Source of the DNA: Plotosus lineatus
Taxonomy: Eukaryota; Chordata; Actinopteri; Siluriformes; Plotosidae
NCBI GenBank assembly: GCA_024760905.1
Contig: CM045734.1
Span: 37,309,564 to 37,373,563, forward strand
Length of the DNA: 64,000 nucleotides
Reading direction: 5' to 3'
This document shows positions 26,243 to 31,003 of this stretch, piece after piece. The position numbers and the translations under genes were made by a program. Position 1 is the stretch's first letter, and every line of letters begins with the position of its first letter. The notes under the pieces are model-generated. The model was not told the DNA's origin. It searched no databases and saw only the letters and a list, made by a program, of their open reading frames with translations.

Positions 26243-26257
26243 CTGTGAGGGACAGGG

Positions 26258-26334
26258 ACACACACACACACACACACACACACACACACACACACACACA
26301 CACACACACACACACACACACACACACACACACA
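26258..26334. repeat. CA microsatellite (TG in the transcript) against the exon 9 acceptor
   Basis: A pure run of 77 nt, ending 15 nt from exon 9. Confidence 0.95.
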
Positions 26335-26630
26335 AAACATTACTTTTATCAACTACAGCCTGATGTAATCCACCAGCTCATGTGTTGCAAAATGGTAGCG
26401 ACTCTCACTACCTGATAAAACCGGGGCAGTCTGGGCTGTAGGGCTAAATTATACCCACCCTCGCCCTTAAAACATATGATAATCATCACTGATCTGATTT
26501 GATGTATTCATTTTCACCTGTCTGCAGTGTCAGGGACTCGTGTCCCACTGATATGTTGACGTACACATAGGTAGATAAGAACCGCAGAACCAGTACTGCC
26601 CATGGCCTTAATACCACACTTTTACACAAC

Positions 26631-26705
26631 TACACACACACACACACACACACACACACACACACACACACACACACACACTCACACACTCACACACTCA
26701 CAGAC
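26631..26705. repeat. CA microsatellite
   Basis: A CA run followed by CTCACACA units, then CT units. Confidence 0.9.
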
Positions 26706-27398
26706 TCACACTCTCTCTCTCTCTGCAGTGATCCATAGTGGGCTGATGAAGAAAGACAACACTTTATAATGATGAGAAGATGGAGTTTCTTGAACATTTA
26801 GAACAATTACGAAAAAAAACATCAAAATTTTAAAATATGACAGCACTCCTGTGGAAAAAGAAAAAAGGATGTTAACTAGCCACCTGAGAGCTTTTTCATC
26901 ACCTACGAACAAACGATTTTTACAAGGTGAGCCAGAAGAAATGACATATTCCCAAAACTGTATCCTCCAGCTCTTGATATCACAAATAATACAACATCAG
27001 ACTAAAAGAATGTGTTGTGCATTCATTGTCAGACTGCCTCACATTGATCTCTGAGGGCTGATAAAAAATGGTGTCACAAAAGGACATTTACATTGACATG
27101 CAGAATAAATGTCACTGTGATCAATGAATAGTCTTGGCTGTCACAAGTCCGATCACTTACAGCAACTCATTGATCAGGCACCTCTGGAGAAGTTCATATT
27201 TGTAATCAATTCAGTTTGTATAACCAATGCCATGTCCTTTACACTGTGCATCAGCTCAAATCATCACCATAATTAGCATCAGTTGTTTGTTTGCTTATTG
27301 TTGTTTGATATTATGAATCATTCAAATCATTGTACACTTATTAAGAACATGTGGTGCTTGTTCAGATTGTTTATGTTCACTGAATATGATTTAAAGGG

Positions 27399-27442
27399 AA
27401 TATATATATATATATATATATATATATATATATATACATATA
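27399..27442. repeat. TA microsatellite beside hammerhead copy 2
   Basis: A TA run bounding the Penelope-like fragment on its left. Confidence 0.9.
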
Positions 27443-27492
27443 CACACAAAAATAAAAGGACAAGACAAAGACTTTCTATTGAAACTCCATTT

Positions 27493-27547
27493 ATCACTAC
27501 AGATCTGTTTCGAGGGGTGGTGAAACCATCCTCTCTCTTCAGGTGAA
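27493..27547 (-). ncRNA. Hammerhead-ribozyme motif in a Penelope-like fragment, copy 2
   Basis: This is an inverted near-identical copy of the fragment at 20705-20810. On the minus strand the core CTGAAGA is at 27542-27536, followed by the same stem II, GAAA and GTA cleavage triplet (last base at 27498). Stem I is weaker: GTGA pairs with TCAC and the fifth position is U-U. The copy is sense relative to mctp1 and lies in intron 8, about 1.25 kb before exon 9. TA tracts flank it on both sides. Confidence 0.7.
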
Positions 27548-27577
27548 TATAGAAGAAGGATCTACTCAGAAAATCCC

Positions 27578-27666
27578 CTATATATATATATATATATATA
27601 TATATATATATATATATATATATATATATATATACATTTTATATATATATATATATATATATATAC
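27578..27666. repeat. TA microsatellite beside hammerhead copy 2
   Basis: A TA run with one CATTTT interruption, bounding the fragment on its right. Confidence 0.9.
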
Positions 27667-28228
27667 ATTTTAATATATATCTTCATGTATTGAGGTACTC
27701 TGCAGATATCCATTATGAATTGATCCATAAGAAATGTTTAAATTAAGCTTTTTAAGACGCTGTTATAGGTTTGGACACACAGATTGATTTCTTGTCTAAA
27801 CAGAGCCATCATACTAGCAAGTTTGGGATTTTTGCTGCGCAGAATAAGGTGGATGCTTAAATTAATTCAAACTGATAGGCAGAAAAATATAGAGACCAAC
27901 TCTATATCCTGCATGGTTCTTCCAATGACATGTGGTTGTCCCAGGCGACGAACTTTAACCTTGTTTGTGAGGTGCCTGTCTGAGTGCATTTTACGCTTTG
28001 CCTCGATGAAACTTTGACTCTCCAGGTGTGGCCAACGAGACACCGTGTGCTGGTTAATTTTGGCCCGACTGCTGAGATGAGTTCAACCTGATTTTGGCTC
28101 CAATTCAAGATGCACAAATATGCAGTATTAACAAACTCTAAGCTGAAAGGAAAACAGAGATGTAGATGGAAATCAATATAACTGCCCAATTTTGCAGATA
28201 TTTATAGCCAAAGCTCTCTCTCTCTCTC

Positions 28229-28330
28229 CACACACACATATATATATATATATATATATATATATATATATATATATATATATATATACACATACATACA
28301 CACACACACACACACACACACACACCACAC
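28229..28330. repeat. TA and CA compound microsatellite
   Basis: A TA run followed by CATACATACA and a CA run, just left of element E. Confidence 0.9.
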
Positions 28331-28364
28331 ATATACATGCATATGTATATACATTATACATATA

Positions 28365-29007
28365 CAGACGCTCCCCGACTTACGTTTTTAATTGGTTCTG
28401 GCCGGCCGAACGTAAGTTGAAAGTGAACGCAAGTTGTTACAGTGACGAATGATGTATGACGCTCATACTGTACTATACATCCATAAATACCATTACCGTA
28501 TCTCATAAAACACCCCTAAATCAATTATTATAAACATAACATTGTAAAATAATATCAAACAATATCAACATTAATTTCAAATAAGTCACTTATTTATACC
28601 GAGTTACTTTACATGAAGCTTGAAACAGTCAATCAACGCTTACAATATGTGAAGCGCTCAATACTGAAAGTAGTGTACTTGCAAAAGTAGTGTACTTGCT
28701 GTGGGTTACAGACTTCCGGTCTTTCACTCGTTTATAACACAGCCTGCACTGATGCAGTCTCCCAGCAAAGAGGAGAGTTCTTTCATTTGTGTAAGTAAAT
28801 AAACTTTATTCAACAGACGCATACAAAGAACAAGTACACAAGTACAAATCCTAATGAATATTAATATAAAAATAAGTATACACTCTTAGGATTCTGCTAA
28901 AAGATAACAAATATAAAGATTGTGCCGATCTGAGCAGATAGTTAATTCATCTCTGTGTATGAGACTTGCACCCATGCTAGTAGGCTTACACTTCTGACCA
29001 ACCATAT
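28365..29007 (+). mobile_element. Family E element, right end missing
   Basis: It starts CAGACGCTCCCCGACTTACG after a TA and follows the copy at 50609 through the CATAACATTGTAAAATAATA block and the GAGACTTGCACCCATGCTAG block. The internal part at about 28780-28915 differs from that copy. Alignment stops near 29007, before the right terminal repeat. It lacks the SINE found in the other copy. Confidence 0.75.
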
Positions 29008-29094
29008 TTGCTTAGGGTTACAAAAGTCCGCAAAACAGTGTAAACACAAAGATCACAGAGACGACATCTTAACATAAGGATAACACGCTATATA

Positions 29095-29214
29095 ACACAC
29101 ACACACACACACACACACACACACACATATATATATATATATATATATATATATATATATATATATATATATATATATAGAGAGAGAGAGAGAGAGAGAG
29201 AGAGAGAGAGAGAT
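29095..29214. repeat. CA/TA/GA compound microsatellite
   Basis: Three consecutive pure runs: CA, TA and GA. Confidence 0.9.
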
Positions 29215-29835
29215 ATGGAGTTAAACATTTTTATACAACAATTATGATAGGACATGTTTACATATACATGTTTCCAAATATTCCTATTAATTCCATTATT
29301 TATCCTAGAGCATGTATTGCGGATTCTAATCAGTGTTGAATTTTCATTTGCAGGATCAACCCATTGGGAGCATCACTGAATGGAGCTCTTTCTCCCTAAA
29401 CACTGTTGGTTTTACAAACTCTACCCATTTATCGTGCTGGTTTGGAGTGGAGGTACTCCAGATAAACGCCTCAATTAATTACACCGAAGAAGAGCGAGTG
29501 AGGGGAGTAGACCAGCCGGTTGTACACTGGAGTGCAAGTGAGGTAAAAACAGAGCATGAGAATAGGTTAAGATCACCCTCAAATCCTCTCTCTCTCTCTC
29601 TCTCTCTCTTCTCTCTCTCTATTAGAGGAGGCACTGTTCCATGTCTCATAACCCTGTGCCATGGCCGATTGAGACAGCGGGGCCCTGAGAGGGCCGTGCT
29701 TCTTCTTATGGCAGGAAAGCAGTGTGAAATCAGAGCTCCTGAGGCAGCCTTGCTTCTCCTGGGAAGGATGGACCGGGCTGTGAGGTCTACGTAACAGCCG
29801 GACCTCCAGATCGTTGAACTGTCACGGACAGCAGT

Positions 29836-29881
29836 ATCTGTGTGTGTGTGTGTGTGTGTGTGTGTGTGTGTGTGTGTGTGG
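29836..29881. repeat. TG microsatellite
   Basis: A pure TG run. Confidence 0.9.
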
Positions 29882-30325
29882 GTTGGAAAAGTTCCTGCCA
29901 TCGAGCATGTCTTAATTAAAGATGCCTAGAGAAACTGAACAGACTGAGCAGCTAAAGAGGTGAAGAGTGAGAAGCATTTAAGATACGACTGCCATCATCT
30001 CGTTCTTCCTTCCTTTCATTGTCTATTTAGAAATGAGCTTCTTATTGTCTTCCTTTTCAACAGCACTTGGAGTGGTAATAAAAAGTGAGGTTGGTATTAA
30101 TATAGACAACAGGAGAAAACTTCACAATCTATTATTTTCGAATACCAACTTTTCAACCTTCTATCTAAGTATTTTAAGCGATATCATGGATTCAAACTAT
30201 TCTTAGAGATTTAAATAAATATATTTATTTAAATTAAAGTTGCGGAGCAGATCAAGAATTTCACTCTTATAAGAGTTAAATTCCCAAAACAACAACAAAA
30301 CTCCTTCAGGATACAGAGCGCGCCC

Positions 30326-30391
30326 GCGCACACACACGCACACACACACACACACACACACACACACACACACACACACACACACACACAC
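30326..30391. repeat. CA microsatellite
   Basis: A CA run preceded by GCGCGCCCGCGC. Confidence 0.9.
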
Positions 30392-30925
30392 TTCTTGCAG
30401 GAATAGTTTCATTTAAATATAAACTACTCGGACTGAAAAATTATTCGAGCAAGGAGGTCATGTAGTTTCTAAGGGACCTCATAAATGTTCTTTTCCTTCT
30501 GCCTTTCTTTCTTTCTTTCTTTTTTTTTTAAAGATCCATGCAGCTGTACATCTGGTCTATCCTGGTGGTGTATTAGCACAGAGGGAAAAGGATGGTTGCT
30601 AGTAAATGTTTTTGTTAATGGCCCTGTCTCTTGTACTCTGAATAAAAAAAGAGTTCTGTGCGTCGGCTTCTATCTCTTTTCAGCTCGTTAATACATACTG
30701 CCAGAAACTAGGCCTGTCCATGGTAGACTTAATTAAAAGGAAGAATTAATGGATGAGAAGCAGAACCGTGGGAAAATATGTGTCAGACATATAACACACG
30801 GATCTGTGCTTTCTGTATATTAGTACGGAGCAGCAAAGATTAAACTCGTGCCATTACAATAAGTAATACTCTTTATATCAGTCATCAGAGAAAAGTAGAT
30901 CTCACATTCCTTCATATGTGTGCAC

Positions 30926-30984
30926 GTGTGTGTGTGTGTGTGTGTGTGTGTGTGTGTGTGTGTGTGTGTGTGTGTGTGTGTGTG
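30926..30984. repeat. TG microsatellite (CA in the transcript) against the exon 8 donor
   Basis: A pure run of 59 nt beginning 19 nt after the exon 8 donor in the transcript. It is complementary to 26258-26334. Confidence 0.95.
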
Positions 30985-31003
30985 TTAACAGAATACTCCT
31001 CAC

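What the first reader, a model, noticed from the sequence alone, without database searches (positions are those of the whole stretch)
26243..31003. Intron 8 of mctp1 has complementary (CA)n and (TG)n tracts at its two splice sites
In the transcript the intron reads GT, 19 nt, (CA)n of 59 nt, about 4.6 kb, (TG)n of 77 nt, 15 nt, AG. The acceptor has almost no pyrimidine tract of its own. The two tracts could pair into a helix of more than 50 bp that brings the splice sites together. Paired AC/GT repeats at intron ends have been described in fish as a way to splice without U2AF2. This intron fits that design with both tracts very close to the exons. Repeat length is unstable, so splicing efficiency could vary between individuals.
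Basis: partly seen in the sequence, partly recalled or inferred. Interest (0 to 1): 0.8.

Follow-up and report, generated by a model that had tools for sequence, protein, structure and literature searches.

The report
CA/TG repeats capping a fish intron
One intron of a fish mctp1 gene starts with a long CA repeat and ends with a long matching TG repeat that could pair to bring its two ends together; this looks like another candidate for a class of introns already described in zebrafish, but nothing here shows that the pairing is used.

Summary
On the minus strand, the mctp1 intron 31003→26243 (4761 nt) has (AC)30 at +19..+78 and a 77-nt TG tract at -92..-16, between C2-domain exons that join in frame. 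Two details are off: the spacers are 16 and 13 nt, not 19 and 15, and the acceptor does have a short C-rich pyrimidine tract (13 of 17 in -20..-4), comparable to its neighbours. Random placement of the repeats gives this arrangement in about 2 of 10,000 trials (thresholds chosen afterwards). The predicted equilibrium fold pairs the two tracts (200 of 200 samples). But in prefix folds the donor tract first takes a nearer TG tract, and the best branch-point candidate is at -107, beyond the TG tract, so a complete helix would hold it away from the 5' splice site. In the same gene one acceptor has a TG tract without a CA partner, and one donor CA without TG. Best reading: candidate member of the known zebrafish (AC)m-(GU)n bridged introns (Lin 2016, known here only second-hand); function untested.

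The parts
26243..31003 (-). mctp1 intron between exons X6 and X7 (GT-AG, 4761 nt, phase 1)
   Evidence: Reading frame joins across it as in fish MCTP1 proteins
31004..31097 (-). exon X6 (94 nt), start of a C2 domain, ends ...AADVT-G
26140..26242 (-). exon X7 (103 nt; skipping it would shift the frame), begins G-KSDPFC
30926..30985 (-). (AC)30 tract at +19..+78 of the intron
26258..26334 (-). TG tract of 77 nt at -92..-16
26243..26257 (-). short C-rich pyrimidine stretch and AG: CCCTGTCCCTCACAG
26349..26349 (-). best branch-point candidate, A of TTGAT at -107; the last 92 nt contain only two A, at -4 and -2
   Evidence: not mapped experimentally
30998..31003 (-). 5' splice site GUGAGG, 6 bp complementary to CCUCAC at -8..-3
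30329..30391 (-). competing TG tract about 535 nt downstream of the donor CA tract
   Evidence: 59 of 60 donor-tract bases pair with it in 5 of 7 prefix folds
29839..29880 (-). second CA tract in the intron (42 nt); pairs with the competing TG tract in the full fold
26632..26711 (-). further, interrupted TG tract, alternative partner

Best explanation
The intron is a candidate member of the (AC)m-(GU)n bridged introns described in zebrafish. After the whole intron is made, the donor-side AC tract pairs with the acceptor-side UG tract (about 60-73 bp), loops out some 4.6 kb, and sets the two splice sites within about 35 nt of each other, which helps them to be chosen as a pair. Shown: the anatomy, the complementarity and the predicted equilibrium fold. 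Inferred: that the helix forms in the cell, that splicing uses it, and that it lessens the need for U2AF2. Because the best branch-point candidate lies beyond the UG tract, I infer that the helix serves pairing or early commitment and must open at least partly before the first catalytic step.
For: Tract positions and order match the class (class described in PMC9024468 passages). MFE of intron plus 60 nt of flank on each side -1548.4 kcal/mol, with 60 of 60 donor-tract bases paired to the acceptor tract; the acceptor tract is the main partner in 200 of 200 samples. With both tracts left unpaired the energy is -1410.1. The two forced alternatives tried give -1529.3 and -1504.3. A 6-bp Watson-Crick match of GUGAGG with CCUCAC at the splice sites occurs in 1 of 11 cognate pairs compared (3 of 144 of all combinations; with G-U allowed one further cognate pair also reaches 6). 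The four tracts found within 150 nt of a splice site in this gene all have the 'right' order, none the wrong one (at least 4 right and 0 wrong within 100 nt in 0.00307 of trials). Skipping X7 would shift the frame (103 nt), so splicing here should matter.
Against: Prefix folds pair the donor tract with the nearer TG tract once that is transcribed and still at 4064 nt; at 4464 nt the partner is a third tract. The gap to the better alternative (19 kcal/mol in about 1500) is small for so long a fold, and the program charges no length cost for large multiloops (recalled). Geometry: the branch candidate -107 is only about 15 nt above a helix of 60 bp or more (about 17 nm by recalled A-form rise). 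The acceptor has its own pyrimidines. X3 has a TG acceptor with no CA partner, and X11 a CA donor with no TG partner. No expression, probing or cross-species DNA data.
Confidence: 0.45

Rival explanations
1. Neutral microsatellites. CA/TG tracts are dense in this gene and happened to grow next to both splice sites; the intron is spliced in the ordinary way, using a distant branch point (about -107), an AG-free stretch down to the AG, and the short C-rich tract with U2AF.
For: 32 merged CA/TG tracts in 64 kb on the transcript strand, 7 of them in this intron; GTGAGG donor and 13 of 17 pyrimidines before the AG; TTGAT at -107, with one AG 5 nt after it and the next at -2; 2 of the 4 splice-site-near tracts in this gene have no partner at the other end.
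Against: Joint closeness at both ends is rare under random placement (0.00023); order right in 4 of 4. Both post hoc.
Confidence: 0.33
2. Each tract acts alone through proteins or its own fold: CA near the donor binds hnRNP L and stimulates the 5' splice site, and UG before the acceptor binds TDP-43 (or folds as a pUG quadruplex) and tunes use of exon X7; pairing is incidental.
For: hnRNP L stimulating eNOS splicing through variable-length CA repeats (Hui 2003, seen only as a reference title in PMC3940906). TDP-43 on UG-rich sequence upstream of the CFTR exon 9 acceptor (PMC12171016, abstract start in search listing). UG runs of 12 or more repeats number about 20,000 in human, predominantly in introns near splice sites, and the TDP-43 RNA-binding part binds single-stranded (GU)12 with a first KD of 5 pM or less (PMC12697283, a preprint, passages). 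X3 and X11 have single tracts without partners.
Against: In the CFTR case the UG tract goes with exon skipping, which fits poorly with an exon whose skipping shifts the frame; the predicted duplex is very stable; no binding data for fish were sought.
Confidence: 0.2

Closest known systems
[quoted passage not shown] 2016, Genome Res 26:12; paper not held; described in passages of PMC9024468, and PMC9198270)
   Same: AC repeat near the donor, GU repeat near the acceptor, predicted terminal stem bringing the splice sites together, fish gene
   Different: 4.7 kb long, against the cep97 example of 171 nt (by its coordinates in PMC9024468); four further TG tracts and one further CA tract compete inside the intron; acceptor keeps a short pyrimidine tract; U2AF2 dependence unknown
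eNOS intron 13 CA repeat / hnRNP L splicing enhancer (intron number and position recalled; reference title seen)
   Same: Long CA repeat downstream of a 5' splice site
   Different: Here a complementary TG tract caps the other end; no protein data
CFTR (TG)m / TDP-43 at the exon 9 acceptor (abstract start of PMC12171016 seen)
   Same: UG-rich repeat upstream of an acceptor
   Different: Followed there by a T tract (recalled), here by a C-rich stretch; here a CA partner at the donor

Membership tests
(AC)m-(GU)n bridged introns | AC repeat close to the 5' splice site | tested here: met
   (AC)30 at +19..+78
(AC)m-(GU)n bridged introns | GU repeat close to the 3' splice site | tested here: met
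   77 nt at -92..-16
(AC)m-(GU)n bridged introns | Predicted fold bridges the intron ends | tested here: met
   60 of 60 donor-tract bases paired with the acceptor tract in the MFE, main partner in 200 of 200 samples; but prefix folds choose nearer partners first
(AC)m-(GU)n bridged introns | MFE lower than ordinary introns of the same length | not tested
   No set of same-length introns of this genome; own-genome search unanswered
   13 of 17 pyrimidines in -20..-4, longest run 6. I do not know that the original paper requires this
(AC)m-(GU)n bridged introns | Splicing independent of U2AF2 | not testable with these tools
   Needs knock-down
(AC)m-(GU)n bridged introns | Splicing depends on the pairing | not testable with these tools
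   Needs minigenes with compensatory swaps
(AC)m-(GU)n bridged introns | Repeat pair kept at the same intron in related fish | not tested
   The DNA collections offered are described as viral, prokaryotic, phage, plasmid or (closed to scans here) metagenomic, so I did not scan them; only proteins were found
Distant-branch-point introns | Branch point well beyond -50 with AG-free stretch to the acceptor | tested here: inconclusive
   yUnAy matches in the last 260 nt: -174, -107, -4; A's in the last 92 nt are -4 and -2; an AG at -102 lies 5 nt after the -107 candidate, next AG is -2. Branch point not mapped

The most novel reading that the evidence does not exclude
The CA and TG tracts form a switch rather than a fixed bridge. 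Early in transcription the donor tract is held by the near TG tract, and only after the acceptor TG tract appears does strand exchange bring the ends together; the helix must then open from the branch side. Splicing would thus be timed by transcription and by repeat length, with the branch point kept on the far side of the helix.
Probability: 0.08. Interest if true: 0.7.

Novelty: new member of a known kind. Interest (0 to 1): 0.36.

Why it matters
If the bridge is used, the intron would extend a mechanism described for zebrafish to a long intron of another fish (closest protein by identity: a bagrid catfish), and would sharpen an open point: how a helix that joins the two splice sites can allow first-step chemistry when the branch point lies beyond it. 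The same gene also offers built-in controls, X3 (TG only) and X11 (CA only). If the bridge is not used, it is an example of matching repeats sitting at both intron ends without effect.

Tried and rejected
Rejected: 'almost no pyrimidine tract'. Rejected as evidence: the 'forbid' run, in which the constraint left both tracts entirely single-stranded instead of letting them find other partners; I use its energy only as 'neither tract paired' and made forced-pair folds instead (two alternatives tried, not all). The first Monte Carlo used 11 introns and treated X2-X3 as one; after two more exons were found (49775-49664 and 47365-47327) it was redone with 13 (intron lengths there within a few bases of these coordinates). 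still use the 11-intron model; one search checked the four added splice sites and found no CA or TG run of 12 nt or more within 150 nt. The window has 1 Rfam match, outside the intron. Literature: Lin 2016 and a follow-up review (PMC5014005) are not held, so the figure of 10% of zebrafish genes, recalled from the abstract, is not used as evidence. Searches for the class; for the rivals. Papers looked at without use: PMC7404189 (passages), PMC5766209 (passages).

Full report
Gene and intron. Twelve exons (X1-X12) read on the minus strand between 61.9 and 13.2 kb. Two more, at 49775-49664 and 47365-47327, appeared when fish MCTP1 proteins were compared with the window. Exon pieces match the C2 domain (3 of 3 queries; E 1.6e-7, 2.2e-12, 2.9e-26). 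The joined X3-X12 peptide (400 aa) matches MCTP1 proteins: 93% identity to Astyanax mexicanus mctp1a (best score) and 96% to Tachysurus ichikawai MCTP1, the highest identity among the 120 rows listed of 894 hits (the call scored only the 7998 candidates sharing most words). The window is therefore mctp1 of a fish; that it is close to bagrid catfishes is inference from that one identity. The focal intron runs from 31003 to 26243 and the frame is right: GTT ACA G|GC AAG AGT = V-T-G-K-S.

Anatomy. In the transcript the intron reads GU, 16 nt, (AC)30 at +19..+78, about 4.6 kb, alternating UG of 77 nt at -92..-16, 13 nt, AG. The acceptor ends GUCCCUGUCCCUCACAG. Of the 17 positions -20..-4, 13 are pyrimidines, and the longest run is 6. 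Among the 12 acceptors only X4 has a higher fraction and X1, X9 and X11 tie. It is C-rich, so weak for U2AF2 by recalled knowledge, but it is not absent. The acceptor with the least pyrimidine in this gene is X3 (8 of 17, longest run 2).

Branch point. The TG tract holds no A. The only A's in the last 92 nt are at -4 and -2. The yUnAy matches in the last 260 nt are at -174, -107 and -4. TTGAT with A at -107 is the best candidate: an AG follows 5 nt later (-102), too close to be used by the usual scanning rule (recalled), and the next AG is the real one at -2. So this is probably a distant-branch-point intron. If the whole AC:UG helix forms, the branch point sits about 15 nt above its far end while the 5' splice site sits at its near end. 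A 60-bp A-form rod is about 17 nm (recalled rise), too far for 15 nt of single strand. The helix can help to select a pair of sites, but it should have to open, wholly or partly, for lariat formation. This is inference from geometry.

Folding. Intron alone: MFE -1512.1 kcal/mol, 60 of 60 donor-tract bases paired with the acceptor tract and a further 13 bases of that tract paired with the donor tract's flank. With 60 nt on each side: -1548.4. Forcing the donor tract onto the near TG tract (30329-30391) gives -1529.3, with the second CA tract then taking the acceptor tract; forcing it onto the tract at 26632-26711 gives -1504.3. In 200 of 200 Boltzmann samples the acceptor tract is the donor tract's main partner. 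In 165 of 200, at least 4 of the first 6 intron bases are paired; in 111 of 200 some of them pair with the last 12 nt; the -107 A is paired in 13 of 200. GUGAGG:CCUCAC is a 6-bp Watson-Crick match that no other of the 11 cognate pairs compared reaches; 3 of 144 of all donor-acceptor combinations reach it, this one included, and with G-U allowed X9-X10 also has 6. Prefix folds tell another story: of 7 lengths tried, the near TG tract holds the donor tract in 5 (764 to 4064 nt); at 564 nt the donor tract is largely unpaired, and at 4464 nt its partner is the tract at 26632-26711. The end-to-end helix therefore needs strand exchange or delayed pairing. Order says nothing about folding: TG first and CA last should pair as well (inference, not run).

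Chance. The window has 11 CA and 21 TG merged tracts (runs of 16 nt or more) on the transcript strand; this intron has 2 and 5. Random placement within introns (13 introns) gives both-end closeness as tight as seen in 0.00023 of trials, 0.00072 at 30/30 nt and 0.00698 at 100/100 nt. The four tracts within 150 nt of a splice site are CA after a donor (X6, X11) or TG before an acceptor (X7, X3), none reversed (for 11 introns; for the four added splice sites). At least 4 right and none wrong within 100 nt occurs in 0.00307 of trials. These limits were chosen after looking, and a genome-wide scan could find such cases by chance, so the numbers are descriptive.

Controls in the same gene. X3's acceptor carries an interrupted TG tract from -71 to about -12, yet its intron holds no CA run longer than 9 nt. 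X11's donor carries CA at +12..+70, but X12's acceptor has no TG tract of 16 nt or more within 150 nt. X3, X11 and X12 align to 5 of 5 fish proteins tried; the exact first codons of X3 match in three of these (P0002, P0008, P0067), while P0001 and P0014 differ just there, so X3's boundary is a little less sure. If these exons are spliced normally, a TG acceptor or CA donor does not by itself imply a bridge.

Literature. [quoted passage not shown] PMC9198270 (passage) and PMC9508853 (passages) cite the same work. The primary paper is not held. PMC12697283 (preprint, passages) says humans have about 20,000 UG runs of 12 or more repeats, predominantly in introns near splice sites, that TDP-43 binds them single-stranded very tightly, and that they can fold as quadruplexes. 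This makes single-tract explanations serious rivals.

Verdict. Real feature, correctly placed, partly misdescribed; best filed as a candidate member of a known class, with the functional tests still to be done. The branch-point geometry and the order-of-transcription problem are the parts worth a specialist's time.

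Noticed in passing
41208-41278 (-): X3 acceptor: interrupted TG tract from -71 to about -12, no pyrimidine run above 2, and no CA run above 9 nt in its intron; a TG-tract acceptor without a partner.
   Followed up: partly
20262-20331 (-): X11 donor followed by CA at +12..+70, with no TG tract near the X12 acceptor.
   Followed up: partly
10897-10932 (-): 36-nt stretch about 2.3 kb past X12 that encodes ESPQRSICAFLI, 11 of 12 residues as in the end of exon X11 and the start of X12, between TA (10842-10886) and CA (10947-10972) repeats: perhaps a stray partial exon copy. 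The DNA comparison was cut off before it could show or exclude this.
   Followed up: no
7695-8904 (-): The Tachysurus MCTP1 isoform P0014 has a C-terminal tail (residues 442-570) that matches pieces of this stretch at 73-93%, and it lacks the C-terminus seen in P0001: an alternative or mispredicted end.
   Followed up: no
523-1161 (+), 53278-54627 (+), 57605-58260 (-): Frames that look like reverse-transcriptase fragments of retrotransposons, judged by eye only.
   Followed up: no
51343-51416 (-): tRNA match just above threshold (32.7 bits, cut-off 29), possibly the head of a SINE.
   Followed up: no
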